Assembly (NCBI RefSeq): GCF_018320785.1
Contig: NC_054865.1
Coordinates: forward strand, 13,117,579-13,181,578
DNA length: 64,000 bases
From: Cheilinus undulatus
Lineage: Eukaryota > Chordata > Actinopteri > Labriformes > Labridae
Direction of reading: 5' to 3'
The notes under the pieces were generated by a model, which was given only the letters and a program-made list of their open reading frames with translations, searched no databases and was not told the DNA's origin. The translations under genes and the position numbers were made by a program. The first letter of the stretch is position 1, and every line of letters starts with the position of its first letter. Below are positions 2,498 to 63,369 of the stretch, piece by piece.

Positions 2498-34556
<32,059 letters not shown>

Positions 34557-36560: not shown

Positions 36561-36891
36561 CATACCAAGATAGAGTGGTTAGTTACTGGCACTAAAGAAA
36601 ATGGAGTAAAAATAATGCTTTCATATGGGGTAAATTTCACTGCATGGTAGTTCTGGGTATAAAAGGCCATTTTTAAAATCTGTTTTATTTGAACAAGTCT
36701 TCACAACACCATCTGCTACATAACAACTTAAAGACAAATCTGAGACGGACAGACTTTTATGTTTTGTTAATACAAAACAATAGAAGAAACGATTTTTAAT
36801 GCATCTTTTCTGATTATGTCAGTGTCCTCCTCTGTTTTCATTTAAAAACAGCTTTGAATCCAATGAACAATAAAAGGTATTTTGTCTTCAG

Positions 36892-36934
36892 CCAATCATA
36901 GCACAGCAGAAGAATGTTTGGGTTGCTTGGCAAC
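36892..36934 (+). promoter_or_regulatory. CCAAT box and RFX X-box upstream of the unknown gene
   Basis: 36892-36896 is CCAAT. 36921-36934 is GGTTGCTTGGCAAC; its reverse complement GTTGCCAAGCAACC is a full match to the X-box shape (two inverted half-sites around a 2-base spacer) bound by RFX factors. It lies 138 bases before the predicted ATG. In animals such promoter-proximal X-boxes mark many ciliary genes. Confidence 0.6.
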
Positions 36935-37071
36935 TGTCTAAGGTTCAAACTAGCATCACTTGACTTCTATGTTTAGTTAGGCTATATAAAAGTAAATTAT
37001 TTTAGCTCTTAAATTTTTCCCATTGTTACAACTCAGCTTTGTCACTGAAAATTAGCTTAGATTCTTTCAAA

Positions 37072-39317
37072 ATGAACCAACAAATGTTTTTTTTATCAGA
37101 GGAGGAGAGACAGCATCGTCACAATGAGGTCAGGCACGCTACAGTCTGTGAAACATTTCCCTTTCAGCATCATGTCTAGGTTTTTGGTTAATCTCACTCT
37201 GCTTTTCAGAAAATGATGATGAGACAGTTTCTGCTCCTGAAGCAGCAAAACGAGGTTCCTGATCATTTAACCATCAAAGACTTGAAGGCCTGGCTGCTGG
37301 CCAGAAGAAATTTCATGGAGGAGTATGTGGAAAATCATTGGTGCCATTCAAAACTTAAAGCTGTTCCCATGTTTGCAATGACATGCCTCATGATTGCATT
37401 TATAGGTTTGGAGAAATGATGGAGAAAGTGGGAGCAAGAAGAAGACTCCATGCTGAACAGGTACGTACAACATGTTTGCTTAAAATGAAATCACTTAACA
37501 CAGTGATATACCCTGAAACTGGCAGAGGAGTCTGGCTGCAGACCACAGATGTTGGTTTTGCAGACCAACAGTGACACACTGCATCTGTTAGAACAAAAGG
37601 GACGTAATTTGCCGGTACAACATTTAAGACTTAAAAATAAAACCTTTAAAACAAAGTCTAGCAGTCACATTAATGAAATAACTACATTTGTAAGAGTACA
37701 TGGTAAGAACATTTCATAGATAAACCAGAGAAAAAGGCCTGATGTCTTATCCAGGATGAAATCATATATAGACCTGTTTTAGTGAACGCTGGCTCGCTTT
37801 AGCATCATTAGCTTTAGCTAAAGCATAGCTTAGAAGTGGCAAAAATAGGCAACAACGGGGAAAAAAGTGGCAAAATGGAGGAAAAGTGGCAAAAAGGGAA
37901 AAGCAGAAAAAATGGGTTTCAAATGGCAAAAAAGTGGCAGAAATTGGTTGAAAAAGAATCGAAAGATGTTAAAAAATGGTACAAATGAATCATCAGAACC
38001 CAATAACAGCTTTACGTGCTTTGCTTCTTCAAAACGAAGTGACTGTTTGCCAGGATGTTAGCACCAGTGCTACAGATCCAACACACATGCATTGACATCA
38101 TCAATAAATCACAACTTTGGAGGGCCCGTCCTCTGGGTCTCTCTTGTCAGGTTTATTGTCAGGATATTATCCTAATTCCTCTCTGCATTATTTGGTGTTT
38201 TTTGTTGGACATGTAGGATGGATTTACAGAATTCTGCATGCAGAGTCTTGTTTTAATGTTTGTCCCAGTTTGGTAAAGTCAGGCTTTATTACCGATTCCA
38301 AGATTTTGATCCAGATTTGAATTTAAAGTTCTTATTTGATCCTCCTTTGGACAGTGTAAAAAGCCCTTCTTGCCTTGTCTCTCAGGACTTTTTCAAAGTT
38401 AGCTGTGGTGCTGATGTTTAGGCAAAGGTAACTATGTATTTGTGTTTTCTGTATTTATTTATTTATTAGTATTTTATAGACATGTATCCCCTCATCTGAC
38501 TGATAAAATATAACCCAAACTTTCTCCCAGTTAATTTTTATTACTTTGTGATGTTTTCAGGCTTGGGTATCAATGAGGCGCCTCTGCCTCTGGCACATGG
38601 AGCAAGAGCTCATGAATATGCTAGAAGAGGAAAAGCATCTGTCCCAGCAGTTCAACAGAGAGGTTAGGACCAAAGTCCAGAGTGAGCATTTAAGTGCCTG
38701 TGTGTCATTCAATCACTTACTCTTAATTCCCACTGTCCTTGAAGGTCACACGTGAGGGCTTTCAAATGTTCTTGGCTGCCATACGCTTACAAGCAAAGGA
38801 GGATGTGGAGCCCCTTCTCACAGCTCTGTTCAGGAGGCTGCTGAGGGTTTTTGTTGGTGTTGAGCCATCCAGTGGTGCTCTGTCTGCGATGGATTCAAAG
38901 CCAGCAGAGGTTTTAGAGCTTGAGAAACAAGCTGCACTCCTGGCACCAGTGGTGGTGGAAGCTGCCGTTAAGTTCATCCTGGAAGAACCAGTAAGCAAAA
39001 AGAAGAAAGTAGCTGTCAGTGCTGAAATAGCAAAACTGCTCCATAAAACTGCAGCTCCCTACCTCACTGCGTTTAGATCATACCCCAGAGACCTTTGTCT
39101 CTCAGTCTGTACCATAGCGGCCTCCTCCATGGTTGAAGCTGTGCAAAAGAGGTTCAATGAGAACTCCAAGGTCTGCGTACTCATGGACTATGACCAAAGC
39201 TCTTTCGAGGCCAGAGGGTGGATCATCTCGGCCATCGAAGAGATGGAAGCCTCCAACAGGCCTCTGTCAGGTCAAGACCTCAGAGCAGCTAAAGGAACCA
39301 CAACAGGAAGGAGCTAA
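37072..39317 (+). CDS. Unrecognised five-exon gene, 299 residues
   Basis: Exons are 37072-37128, 37210-37322, 37406-37460, 38561-38662 and 38745-39317, totalling 900 nt with consistent phases (0, 2, 0, 0). The first donor is a weak GTCAGG; the others are normal. I do not recognise the product. The first half is rich in Glu, Arg, Met and Gln (for example KMMMRQFLLLKQQNE and MEQELMNMLEEEKHLSQQFN) and looks alpha-helical or coiled-coil. The last exon, 190 residues, is Ala/Leu-rich helical with one basic run (KKKK) and no catalytic signature. No signal peptide or membrane span. An ATTAAA signal follows 83 bases after the stop. The X-box upstream hints at a ciliary role, which is inference only. 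Codon use and intact frame argue for a real gene. Confidence 0.75.
37463..38560 (+). other. Intron 3 of the unknown gene
   Basis: Contains a short degenerate tandem stretch around 37840-37950 built on the word AGTGGCAAAA. No exon or clear transposon was found. Confidence 0.4.
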
Positions 39318-39399
39318 AGATCCCATGACAGAGGAATTGGTCACCAGTACTTCCACCCCAAAGCTAAAAAGATGTGTTATTCTGTGACATTAGTCAACC

Positions 39400-39405
39400 A
39401 TTAAA
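39400..39405 (+). promoter_or_regulatory. Polyadenylation signal of the unknown gene
   Basis: ATTAAA, the commonest variant hexamer, lies 83 bases after the stop codon at 39317. Confidence 0.5.
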
Positions 39406-39929
39406 GTTAGAATTTTAATATATTTTCTTGATCCAGTTTGATTGCTTGATGTCTCCTGTTTTATGCAGATAAAGTACAAATATTCAAATGTATGACACAT
39501 CGTTTAGTTTAGTTGTGTTTGGATGTTGTCTATTGCACAGTGATCCCTGCTGGGGTTATTCTGCTCATGTTTCTGGTGGACTGTTGTCATTTTTTGTATG
39601 AGACTCATGAGTGAAGTTATCCACTGACATAGGTTTTTACTTTAGATGATGTTGTTCTTGAAGGAGGCCCACTTTGCCACAGCTGTTCAGGAGTTGCTGT
39701 AGATCTGTCAAATTGATCAATGTCTGACTCTTTTAAAGGTGTAGTTTAACTAGTTTAAGTGTTAATTTTACTCATCTGGGTTTTATTTACACTGTCAATA
39801 TGCTGTGTATCTAACTTTATTATAGAGGTGTGTGACATTACCTGAACAGCCTGAATGGAGATCTATTCTCCTGTTCTTGCCAATAAGGAAAGATTATCTA
39901 CAGTATACATACTCAGTGTCTATGCAATA

Positions 39930-40030
39930 CTTAAAGTAAACTTCAAATGTAATACTTTTACTTTTACTTGAGTATATTTTGACCAGAGTTACTACTTTTA
40001 CTTGAGTACAATAGTCTGGTATACCTTTTC
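39930..40030. repeat. Third copy of the ACTTTTACTT dispersed repeat
   Basis: Shares words such as TACTTTTACTTGAGTA and GACCAGAGTTACTACTTTT with the stretches at 280-480 and 960-1080. Probably transposon-derived; the family is not identified. Confidence 0.5.
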
Positions 40031-40299
40031 TCTGGTCATAATCCCTTAAAGGGATGTCGAGTTTGCCTGTAAATTATGAAAATAATTTCAATCATTGTTT
40101 TTCATCAAAAACAAAGGAACTATATGCGATAAATTTCATTTAAAGGTTTAAATTCCTTAAGTTAGTCAAAATTAAAATTTTCTTATCAGGTCTCATGCTG
40201 ATGAGAAAATTAAAGCTAGAAAATTTTGACAAAATATCAATGAATACAAATTATTACTCCTATTTAATTATGGTATCAATTTGTGGACTGGAATAAGGC

Positions 40300-41010
40300 C
40301 ATGGACAACACTTTTTACGGTATCTGAGGGTTAATATCTATTTTAAATACAACTCAGTTTTTACCGTAAATTATCCCGCCTTTATGGCGGAACTAAAGAA
40401 AACACAGCGAACTAAGTTTCCGCCCGGACTCAAATTCATTCGGCACCGTGTGCACATTGTTGTGTTTCATTGGTGGATTGGAGACTTGGAATCAACTTTC
40501 TGCTGCTGTGGCTTGAGAAAACTCATCTTTGTTTACTTCAGTTAAAGTGTGCACGCTGCGCATTTACCTGGCTCGGTAAACGAAACGTCACGCGCATCGA
40601 TTACACTATCACATGTCACATATAACCGTTTATATCATTTTTAACATAAAATTGTCCATGTGCATGATTTGTTGAGCAAAGCTGTTAGCAGTGCAAGCAT
40701 GCATGGTGTTAGTGAATGTTAATGTATGTTTTGTGTAGCCTGTGAAGTGCTGATGACTCTCTTTGTACCGTGCACGTGTCTGCTGTAACCTGCACCAAAA
40801 CACCTGCAGGCAGCCATCCACCGCGTATGACTCAATCTGTGCCTATGAGTTTCATATCAATGACATTATAAATCGCCATCAGATTACAATGCTTTTCGCT
40901 GTCGTGCAACTTATATTATGGTCGTCAATCCTTGTATCTATAGCTGGTTGGGAGTATCAACGCAGGAAACGTTAGTAGAGTTGCAGCACAATTTTGTCAG
41001 TTTGACAGTT
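40300..41010 (+). other. Candidate tdp1 promoter and untranslated first exon region
   Basis: This is the stretch with the most CpG between the unknown gene and tdp1 (for example CGTCACGCGCATCGATTAC around 40588-40605). An inverted CCAAT box (ATTGG) is at about 40469. The tdp1 ATG exon begins with an AG acceptor two bases before the ATG, so at least one upstream untranslated exon must exist; this region is the best place for it, but I cannot fix its donor. Confidence 0.35.
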
Positions 41011-41276
41011 AGTCTTGGCCTTAATTAATCTGTGTTTATTCGTTAGATGGTGTAGATACCTGACTGGGGTTGTCACTATACGTATTTAAAAATTTAGTAC
41101 AAAGTCAGTTGATATTGATATTGATACTGGTATTGATATCAGTGCCATAATAACAAAAACGCAGGCATCCGATATTGTTTAACTGGTTAACTCCTACACA
41201 CTGTTCAAATATTTTTAATGTAGGTGTTTGTGATTTTATGATATCTAAGGCACCAGTTTGTTTATATAAACCTACC

Positions 41277-41995
41277 ACAAAAGGTAAAGAAATTTGTGTT
41301 TGGTAGATTGTTTCTTTGTTGTTCAGTGTTTCTTGGCAATAAATCTTAGTCTGTTGGAAAGCCTGTATCCATATCTCCACAGTCTGGATCCAAACCAAAG
41401 AAACCTCCAAGATGATAACACGCCCCCACAGAATTAGGTTTATGAGAGACTACCTCCAGAATTCGGGAGTGGAGGGGATGGAATGGCCTGCCAGCCATCC
41501 TGACCTCAACCCCATTGAACACTTGTGGGATCAGCTTTTTGTGTGCTGTTCGTGCCAGGGTGACAAACTCAACCACATTGGCTGACTTGTGACAAATGCT
41601 GGTTGAAGAATGGGATGCCATCCCACAGCAGTGTGTGACCAGGCTGCTGACCAGCATGAGGAGGAGGAGGTGCCAGGCTCTTGTGGCTGTCTGTGGTTCT
41701 GTCTGTGGCTCCTGTTTGTTAAATGAATAAATTGTTGAATTAACAATATGTCCTGTGTCTTCAAACTTCAATCATCCAACCCACCAAACACTACCAGACA
41801 AGAGACAATGGCAGAGTAAGCAGTTTGTCACCATCAGAGAAGATTTTGCAAAATTTTCATGGGCGCATACTCTTTAGATATCTGGCACATTTAAAATGGA
41901 AATAAACAGGCTTTCCAACAGTATAAGATTTATTGCCAAGAAGCATTGTTACAACAAAAATAAATTCCAAACACATATTTCCTTACTTTTTTGTG
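41277..41995 (+). mobile_element. Tc1/mariner-type remnant with roughly 90-bp inverted repeats
   Basis: The left arm (41277-41371) contains TTTCTTGGCAATAAATCTTA and TTGGAAAGCCTGT; the right arm (41907-41995) contains their complements ACAGGCTTTCCAA and TAAGATTTATTGCCAAGAA. Between them the plus strand keeps the end of a transposase in broken frames: a DLNPIEH-type block near 41505 and EEWDAIPQQCVTRLLTSMRR at about 41606-41665. It has lost the N-terminal half. It lies just upstream of tdp1. Confidence 0.65.
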
Positions 41996-42171
41996 CCAGA
42001 TATTTTTAAGCTTTGTCACTTTTGGAAACTGTTGTTTATTAAAATACTGGCGATTCTTAATTTTAAAATCACATTCTCTCCAAATGTATCAAACTACTGA
42101 AATGCTTGCCAACCTTATGTGTTACCCTGATTGACTTCTGATGTTTGATATTTCTGTATTTGTGACCAGGC

Positions 42172-56083
<13,912 letters not shown>

Positions 56084-61732: not shown

Positions 61733-63369
61733 CACACGTGGACAAAATTGTTGGTACCCCTCTGTTAATGAAAGAAAAACCCACAATGGTCACAGAAATA
61801 ACTTGAATCTGACAAAAGTTATAATAAATAAAAATTCAATGAAAATTAAACCAATGAAAATTCAGACATTGCTTTTATAATTGTGGTTCAACAGAATTAT
61901 TAAAAAAAAAAAAACTCATGAAACAGGCCTGGACAAAAATGATGGTACCCCTAGAAAAGACTGAAAATAATGTGACCATAGGGACATGTTCAACCAAGGT
62001 GTGTCCTCTAATTAGCATCACAGGTGTCTACAAACTTGTAATCAGTCAGTCGCCCTATTTAAAGGGTGACAAGTAGTCACCGTGCTGTTTGGTGACGTGG
62101 TGTGTACCACACTAAACATGGACCAGAGGAAGCGAAGGAGAGAGTTGTCTCAGGAGATTAGAAAGAAAATTACAGACAAGCATGTTAAAGGTAAAGGCTA
62201 TAAGACCATCTCCAAGCAGCTTGATGTTCCTGTGACTACAGTTGCACATGTTATTCAGAAATTTAAGATCCACGGTACTGTAGCCAACCTCCCTGGACGT
62301 GGCCGCGGGAGGAAAATTGATCACAAATCGAAGAGACGGATAATACGAATGGTAACAAAAGAGCCCAGAACAACCTCCAAAGACATTAAAGGTGAACTCC
62401 AAGTTCAAGGTACATCAGTGTCAGATCGCACCATCCGTCATTGTTTGAGCCAAAGTGGACTTCATGGGGAACGACCAAGGAGGACACCACTGTTGAAAAC
62501 AAATCATAAAAAAAGCGAGACTGGAATTTGCCAAACTGCATGTTGACAAGCCACAAAGCTTCTGGGAGAATGTCCTATGGACAGACGAGACAAAACTGGA
62601 AGTTTTTGGCAAGGCTCATCAGCTCTATGTTCACAGATGCAAAAATGAAGCACACAAAGAAAAGAACACTGTCCCTACTGTGAAAACATGGAGGAGGCTC
62701 TGTTATGTTCTGAGGCTGCTTTGCTGCATCTGGCACAGGGTGTCTTGAATCTGTGCAGGGTACAATGAAATCTCAAGACTATCAAGGTATTCTAGAGAGA
62801 AATGTGAAGCCCAGTGTCAGAAAGCTTGGTCTCAGTCGCAGGTCATGGGTCTTGCAACAGGATAATGAACCAAAACACACAGCTAAAAACACCCAAGAAT
62901 GGCTAAGAGCAAAACATTGGACTATTCTGAAGTGGCCTTCTATGAGCCCTGATCTAAATCCTATTGAACATCTGTGGAAGGAGCTGAAACATGGCGTCTG
63001 GAGAAGGCACCCTTCAAACCTGAGACAACTGGAGCAGTTTGCTCATGAGGAGTGGGCCAAAATACCTGCTGAGAGGTGCAGAAGTCTCATTGAAAGTTAC
63101 AGAAATCGTTTGATGCAGTGATTGCCTCAAAAGGTTGTGCAACAAGATATTAAGTTAAGGGTACCATCATTTTGTCCAGGCCTGTTTCATGAGTTTGTTT
63201 TTTAAAATAATTCTGTTGAACCACAGTTCAAAAGCAATGTCTGATTTTCATTGGTTAATTTTCATTGAATTTTTTTATTATCACTTTTGTCAGATTCAGG
63301 TTATTTCTGTGACCATTGTGGGTTTTTCTTTCATTAACAGAGGGGTACCAACAATTTTGTCCACGTGTG
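61733..63369 (+). mobile_element. Nearly full-length Tc1 transposon with IR/DR ends, frameshifted
   Basis: The inverted ends CACACGTGGACAAAATTGTT and AACAATTTTGTCCACGTGTG are bordered by TA (61731-61732, 63370-63371). Inner repeats at about 61928 (CTGGACAAAAATGATGGTAC) and 63159 (GTACCATCATTTTGTCCAG) complete an IR/DR arrangement with arms of about 220 bp. The transposase starts near MDQRKRRRELSQEI (62118) with paired helix-turn-helix, then the GRGRGRKI AT-hook-like motif between the DNA-binding and catalytic parts. It loses frame in the A-run near 62508 and again near 62690. The C-terminal half keeps VLQQDNEPKHTA and SPDLNPIEHLW of the DDE domain. Length 1,637 bp is normal for the family. 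Confidence 0.9.

What the first reader, a model, noticed from the sequence alone, without database searches (positions are those of the whole stretch)
37072..39317. Unrecognised five-exon gene between eprs1 and tdp1
Five exons join in frame to exactly 300 codons with normal GT..AG introns and a poly(A) signal, yet I cannot assign the 299-residue product to a family. The N-terminal half looks coiled-coil, the last exon is a helical Ala/Leu-rich block with no catalytic motif.
Basis: partly seen in the sequence, partly recalled or inferred. Interest (0 to 1): 0.7.

Follow-up and report, generated by a model that had tools for sequence, protein, structure and literature searches.

The report
Unnamed fish helical-bundle protein gene
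This stretch holds an open five-exon fish gene of a so far unnamed protein family whose named relatives in our searches are all perch-like fishes; its protein is predicted to fold into a bundle of helices and likely works as a binding scaffold, but neither its expression nor its job has been tested.

Summary
In detail: five exons exactly as given join to 900 nt, 299 residues, with four GT..AG introns. The gene is not an isolated reading frame. Iterated protein searches gave 42 hits; all 36 named ones are fishes, of 20 genera, and 34 of the 36 are called 'uncharacterized' or 'hypothetical'. The nearest is the wrasse Labrus bergylta (62%). The same genome holds a diverged copy on contig C20 (97 of 280 residues identical) with all four introns at the same positions and phases. 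No Pfam model reaches its cut-off in any of 31 members, and no solved structure matches significantly. AlphaFold2 with 31 sequences gives an all-helical domain (pLDDT 84). By pattern, 24 of 42 hits end in a basic aromatic tail. It was not found here, and a frame change against Labrus alters this end. Likely role: a non-enzymatic helical adaptor, membrane-tethered in tailed relatives, likely soluble here; all of that is inferred. A promoter X-box hinting at cilia lies in a dispersed repeat. Transcription and dN/dS were not testable.

The parts
36889..36972 (+). copy of a short dispersed repeat upstream of the gene, carrying an X-box-like palindrome at 36922-36934
36983..36991 (+). TATA-box-like sequence TATATAAAA
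   Evidence: sequence
37072..37128 (+). exon 1 (first in-frame ATG; most relatives are about 10 residues longer here)
   Evidence: intron position shared with the C20 paralogue; no tblastn match of its own
37210..37322 (+). exon 2, 113 nt, ends in phase 2
   Evidence: same length and phase in the C20 paralogue
37406..37460 (+). exon 3, 55 nt
   Evidence: weak; same length in the C20 paralogue
38561..38662 (+). exon 4, 102 nt
38745..39317 (+). exon 5 with the stop codon of the frame as read here
39255..39387 (+). stretch whose shifted frame matches the end of the Labrus protein (..SEQLKEPQQEGAKDPM..CVIL, Labrus ..SEGLKEPGQEGVENP..CIIL); marks a frame change here against Labrus. The left border is approximate
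39400..39405 (+). poly(A) signal ATTAAA

Best explanation
The window holds an open five-exon gene of an unnamed protein family, whose named relatives in our searches are all fishes (percomorphs as far as checked or recalled) and whose product is predicted to fold into one helical bundle and likely acts as a non-catalytic adaptor that would be held at a membrane by a C-terminal tail in many relatives but, with that tail not found here, is likely soluble in this species. Shown: the exon structure, the family, a second copy with the same introns, two clades, and no recognisable tail in the window. Predicted: the helical fold. Inferred and untested: transcription, the adaptor role, membrane attachment through the basic aromatic (often Cys-bearing) tail, and solubility of this copy. 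In tailed relatives the order is helical head, acidic linker of very variable length (repeated in perch and darter), and a roughly 25-residue tail of the type KKKK-VRAFF..W..M-(T/S)CCF-..STED. This suggests a head that binds a partner on a flexible tether.
For: Exact gene model and coding composition. Labrus orthologue at 62% over 84% of the query. 42 hits after iteration, 41 of them at E <= 2.1e-6. The C20 paralogue has the same four intron positions and phases at 97 of 280 identical residues. Two clades are separated at 100/100, with C20 in one and the window in the other, so both copies appear to have stayed open since an old duplication. AlphaFold2 with 31 rows gives pLDDT 84.2 and pTM 0.72, all helices. 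The tail motif is in 24 of 42 proteins by pattern; 21 of these 24 have a Cys in the last 15 residues, and in 21 of 24 its core exceeds 87% or more of that protein's segments in helical hydrophobic moment (some of the 24 are isoforms or near-identical copies).
Against: No RNA, protein or localisation data. With 3 sequences the fold model was poor (pLDDT 48), so it rests on the 31-row alignment. No structural neighbour gives a function. The membrane role rests on composition alone: 3 of the 24 tailed hits (P0010, P0012, P0022) have no Cys in the last 15 residues, and the amphipathic ranking is lower in P0013 (0.81), P0032 (0.78) and P0021 (0.53). This copy departs at 21 of 84 family-conserved columns against 9 of 78 in Labrus, and its end is frame-changed, so relaxed constraint or early decay is possible. 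The Labrus model has no counterpart of exon 1, and no relative matched exon 1 in tblastn.
Confidence: 0.45

Rival explanations
1. The window copy is an early pseudogene or a gene under relaxed constraint: the family is functional elsewhere, but here it has lost its original start, its tail and its frame at the end.
For: 21 of 84 conserved columns changed, against 9 of 78 in Labrus; longer end branch (0.40 against 0.24); frame change near the 3' end; no tail recognised in 38701-44000; N-terminal residues of most relatives missing.
Against: All five exons are open with GT..AG borders, and no stop or frame change is seen before about residue 279. The three Notolabrus copies depart as much (22 of 85 each), yet are annotated as full-length proteins. 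The tail is missing in Labrus too.
Confidence: 0.25
2. A cilium or sperm-flagellum gene switched on by RFX factors through the X-box upstream, its helical product a structural scaffold there.
For: A near-ideal X-box palindrome at 36922-36934, the only GTTGCNNNGCAAC in 64 kb (expected 0.05), about 50 bp upstream of the TATA-like sequence. Such X boxes are described in spermatogenesis promoters (passages of PMC2797782; PMC4498915). 32 of 2000 shuffles of the promoter reach a match as good as 11 of 12 to a looser consensus.
Against: The palindrome lies in an 84-bp dispersed repeat with four more copies found in the genome, two of them with the palindrome kept. By the looser consensus the window holds a second full match at 6567. 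No X-box was found in the 9.9 kb around the C20 paralogue. No axonemal fold or family match.
Confidence: 0.12
3. A fast-evolving immune or stress-response gene of fishes, a helical effector or regulator that varies in copy number between species.
For: Three loci each in Thunnus maccoyii, Micropterus dolomieu and Notolabrus celidotus; rapid divergence. Conserved teleost-specific genes are reported as enriched in immune functions (passages of PMC3599513).
Against: No immune domain and no Pfam match. My scan printed no GAAANNGAAA-like or TTCNNNGAA motif in about 0.5 kb upstream of the window gene or of the C20 copy. The same paper links young orphan genes with the reproductive system, and copy-number variation fits germline genes as well.
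Confidence: 0.2

Closest known systems
Uncharacterized fish proteins: Labrus bergylta isoforms X1/X2, Siniperca chuatsi LOC122870377, Sebastes umbrosus LOC119501070, Perca, Thunnus, Micropterus, Xiphias and others
   Same: Homologous over the helical region; Labrus is the sister in the tree (100/99).
   Different: Most relatives have a longer N-terminus (MD..FIF..VQ.MRPSSFSEEE) and 24 of 42 hits a basic aromatic tail; the window copy shows neither, and ends within about 20 residues after a frame change that Labrus does not have.
C20 copy in the same genome (G000:C20, about 1902549-1903973, minus strand)
   Same: Five exons, same intron positions and phases, exons 2-4 identical in length (113, 55, 102 nt).
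   Different: Belongs to the other clade (with Dicentrarchus, Trachinotus, Thunnus LOC121887216); 97 of 280 residues identical to the window protein; lacks six residues in the loop after about residue 150 and has its own insert; possible separate tail exon downstream.
TNFAIP8 and other helical bundles in the PDB
   Different: No sequence relation found; scores at the level the tool calls common for helical bundles.

Membership tests
Unnamed percomorph family (core EKMMLRQF-MKQQ-VP..MK.WLL; AELAW..AR..C..MEQEL; VT.EGLQMF; LLEEPE; MDYD.S...AR..I.AI.DM) | Homology over the about 260-residue helical core | tested here: met
   62% to Labrus over 84% of the query; 36-58% to the 30 other rows of A4; 42 hits in the iterated search
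Unnamed percomorph family | Five-exon layout with introns in phases 0, 2, 0, 0 at fixed positions | tested here: met
   Same columns for all four junctions in the window gene and the C20 copy. Only these two genes could be compared; no DNA of other fishes was at hand
Unnamed percomorph family | N-terminal stretch MD..FIF..VQ.MRPSSFSEEE (accessory: the Labrus model lacks it too) | tested here: inconclusive
   The window keeps LSEEE and lacks the rest; no earlier in-frame ATG
Unnamed percomorph family | Basic aromatic C-terminal tail (accessory, not defining: 24 of 42 hits have it by pattern, the Labrus orthologue does not) | tested here: not met
   No tail recognised in window 38701-44000 with a profile of 17 tails. 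The same scan gave the C20 tail candidate only E 1.5, so a diverged tail could be missed
Any Pfam-A family, including Exo70_C | Whole-protein score at or above the curated cut-off | tested here: not met
   0 families for the window protein. For the other 30 rows of A4 every family listed up to E 0.1 is below its cut-off. Exo70_C touches 1 of 31 members, at 20 bits against 24.1, in a poly-Lys tail
TNFAIP8-like proteins | TNFAIP8 fold | tested here: inconclusive
CaaX-box (prenylated) proteins | C-terminal CaaX in the frame read | tested here: not met
   The window frame ends GTTTGRS. Labrus ends CIIL, and the shifted window frame ends CVIL. Prenylation itself was not tested
RFX-regulated ciliary genes | X-box in the promoter, conserved between orthologues | tested here: inconclusive
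   X-box present but inside a dispersed repeat and absent at the C20 paralogue; no orthologue DNA at hand

The most novel reading that the evidence does not exclude
A protein family born in percomorph fishes with its own helical fold and an exchangeable membrane anchor: a basic, Cys-bearing amphipathic tail in most species, replaced by a CaaX (prenylation) box in the wrasse line represented by Labrus, and given up in this species.
Probability: 0.15. Interest if true: 0.55.

Novelty: new member of a known kind. Interest (0 to 1): 0.36.

Why it matters
It adds a gene to this genome and, more usefully, ties scattered 'uncharacterized protein' records from 20 fish genera into one family with a defined exon layout, two old clades, a predicted helical domain and a recognisable tail. 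If the family has a new fold and arose in percomorphs, it is a clean case for asking how a lineage-restricted vertebrate gene gains a structured protein and a job. As it stands it is a modest finding: lineage-restricted genes of unknown function are common in fishes.

Tried and rejected

RFX/cilia reading: the X-box looked strong until the promoter piece was searched in the whole genome and proved to be one of five copies of a short dispersed repeat. It is kept only as a weak rival.

Sixth exon: by eye the C20 copy may have a tail exon (KPPASSLFSQLLNMIVHLPSEE before a stop, in the translations), but the tail profile gives it only E 1.5. Nothing like it was seen in the window. Not claimed.

Literature: no paper in the held library holds any of 13 identifiers. 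'eprs1', 'tdp1' and 'teleost' occur together in none. Two general searches on lineage-restricted fish genes gave only background (listings; passages of one paper). This covers the open-licence library only.

Full report
WHAT IS THERE. They join to 900 nt with one stop at the end, coding for 299 residues. The introns are 81, 83, 1100 and 82 nt, all GT..AG. There is an ATTAAA at 39400 and a TATATAAAA at 36983, and base composition at the three codon positions is coding-like. The gene lies head-to-head with eprs1 (minus strand) and upstream of tdp1 (plus strand): Pfam matched three of three eprs1 pieces and one of three tdp1 pieces. The genome has 1.17 Gb in 46 contigs; the piece 37072-37400 matched only itself in it.

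IT IS A CONSERVED GENE. The protein search with the product alone gave two isoforms of one wrasse protein (Labrus bergylta, 62% over 84% of the query). No record identical to the product was listed, so this gene appears not to be in the protein collection. An alignment with Labrus gave 15 hits. A second round with 14 rows gave 42, of which 41 have E <= 2.1e-6 (about 8000 candidates were scored in each of these two rounds, the ones sharing most words). Of the 42, 36 have a name given by a source; all 36 are fishes, of 20 genera. 34 are called uncharacterized or hypothetical; the other two (Thunnus slc25a47-B isoform X2, Sander chromobox 1a) look like fused models. I looked up three of the genera and all are in Percomorphaceae (Monopterus, Labrus, Thunnus); that the other 17 are percomorphs is from my own knowledge. 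No zebrafish, salmon, cod or mammal protein was listed. The search needs shared 5-residue words and a fitting length, so absence is not proof. tblastn of the first 15 relatives against the window matches exons 4 and 5 in 15 of 15 and exon 2 in 13 of 15 (the other two lack that part), within about four codons of the borders; exon 3 is matched weakly, exon 1 not at all.

A SECOND COPY WITH THE SAME INTRONS. A whole-genome search with the Siniperca relative found six matches at two places: this locus and contig C20. The C20 copy has five exons too. All four introns fall on the same alignment columns in the same phases (0, 2, 0, 0), and exons 2, 3 and 4 have the same lengths (113, 55, 102 nt), although only 97 of 280 aligned residues are identical. 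In a 32-row tree the family splits into two groups at 100/100; C20 falls in one (9 rows) and the window in the other (23 rows), next to Labrus (100/99) and, with less support, Sebastes (92/86). Without C20 the place of Monopterus changes, weakly. C20 is a long branch. Both groups hold fishes of several orders (orders from my own knowledge), so the duplication is likely old and both copies have stayed open since. This is my main argument for selection, since dN/dS could not be measured. The count of two copies is a lower limit: the search with the other clade's protein did not complete.

THE TWO ENDS. Most relatives begin MD..FIF..VQ.MRPSSFSEEE, and many end in a tail like KKKK-VRAFF..W..M-(T/S)CCF-..STED, joined to the helical part by an acidic linker of very different length, repeated in Perca and Etheostoma. 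By pattern the tail is in 24 of 42 hits; three more look like it by eye (P0020, P0024, P0025). Of the 24, 21 have a Cys in the last 15 residues. In 21 of 24 the amphipathic core exceeds 87% or more of that protein's segments in hydrophobic moment; the other three are P0013 (0.81), P0032 (0.78) and Sebastes P0021 (0.53). The window copy keeps LSEEE of the start and has no earlier in-frame ATG. No tail was recognised in 38701-44000. The Labrus protein also lacks the tail and ends ..SEGLKEPGQEGVENPP..CIIL. In the window the matching text..SEQLKEPQQEGAKDPM..CVIL, lies in the frame shifted by one, so the frame changed here against Labrus and the product ends after GTTTGRS. That the change arose in this lineage rather than in Labrus is inferred from the likeness of the Labrus linker to the other relatives. 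Whether it is fixed, polymorphic or an assembly error is unknown. CIIL and CVIL look like CaaX boxes. That is a motif recalled from general knowledge, shared by one annotated protein and one out-of-frame text, and is not a result.

CONSTRAINT. At columns kept in at least 85% of the other rows, the window protein departs at 21 of 84, Labrus at 9 of 78, the three Notolabrus copies at 22 of 85 each, and the remaining 26 rows at 1-18% of such columns. The window copy is thus among the most derived. Relaxed constraint is a serious rival to full function.

HOW IT MIGHT WORK. The order head, acidic tether and basic aromatic Cys-bearing tail is best read as an adaptor whose helical head binds a partner while the tail sits on a membrane. 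With the tail gone, the window protein would act in the cytosol, and the Labrus protein there or at a membrane by a lipid on its CaaX-like end. Every step of this paragraph is inference.

A LEAD THAT FAILED. Upstream lies GTTGCTTGGCAAC (36922-36934), a near-ideal RFX X-box (ideal: inverted repeat of GTTGCC with a spacer of 0-3, passage of PMC2797782), the only GTTGCNNNGCAAC in 64 kb (expected 0.05); a looser consensus has one more full match in the window, at 6567. RFX sites mark many cilium and spermatid genes (passages of PMC4498915 and PMC5838959). But the piece 36889-36972 has four more copies in the genome at 77-85% identity; the palindrome is kept in two of the four and changed in two. 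The C20 locus has no such site in 9.9 kb. The X-box is therefore more likely cargo of a repeat than a conserved promoter element.

VERDICT. It is an open member of a real, undescribed fish family. Its function is unknown in print as far as the held library shows (13 identifiers searched, 0 papers). My confidence that this is a genuine protein-coding gene family member is about 0.95; that the adaptor/tether mechanism is right, about 0.35-0.45.

Noticed in passing
window 36889-36972: Short dispersed repeat with an X-box-like palindrome and a CCAAT motif; four further copies on contigs C10, C14, C1 and C15 at 77-85% identity.
   Followed up: partly
L008 (G000:C20:1896500-1906400), minus strand: Second family copy in the same genome, with a possible separate tail exon (KPPASSLFSQLLNMIVHLPSEE before a stop) downstream of exon 5; the evidence is by eye, with a weak profile score.
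   Followed up: partly
protein records P0035, P0037, P0039: Public models that look like fusions of this family with a neighbour: Thunnus maccoyii 'solute carrier family 25 member 47-B isoform X2', Sander vitreus 'chromobox protein homolog 1a', and Plectropomus LOC121943495 (its long N-terminal part looked ALMS1-like to me, from recall).
   Followed up: no
protein records P0026-P0029: Three near-identical family loci of Notolabrus celidotus all carry the same longest-contig length (38134276), which suggests a recent local expansion in a wrasse.
   Followed up: no
Labrus P0002 against window 38663-38744: The Labrus isoform X1 has 28 extra residues at the exon 4/5 border, as if its last intron were read through in frame; the window's intron 4 (82 nt) shows stops there.
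   Followed up: no
window 54519-55118 (-), also about 62070-63121 (+): Tc1/mariner-like transposase remnants; PF01498 was matched for the first, the second by eye from the listed frames.
   Followed up: partly
window 37848-37902: Small A-rich tandem array (period 19) inside intron 3 of the gene.
   Followed up: no
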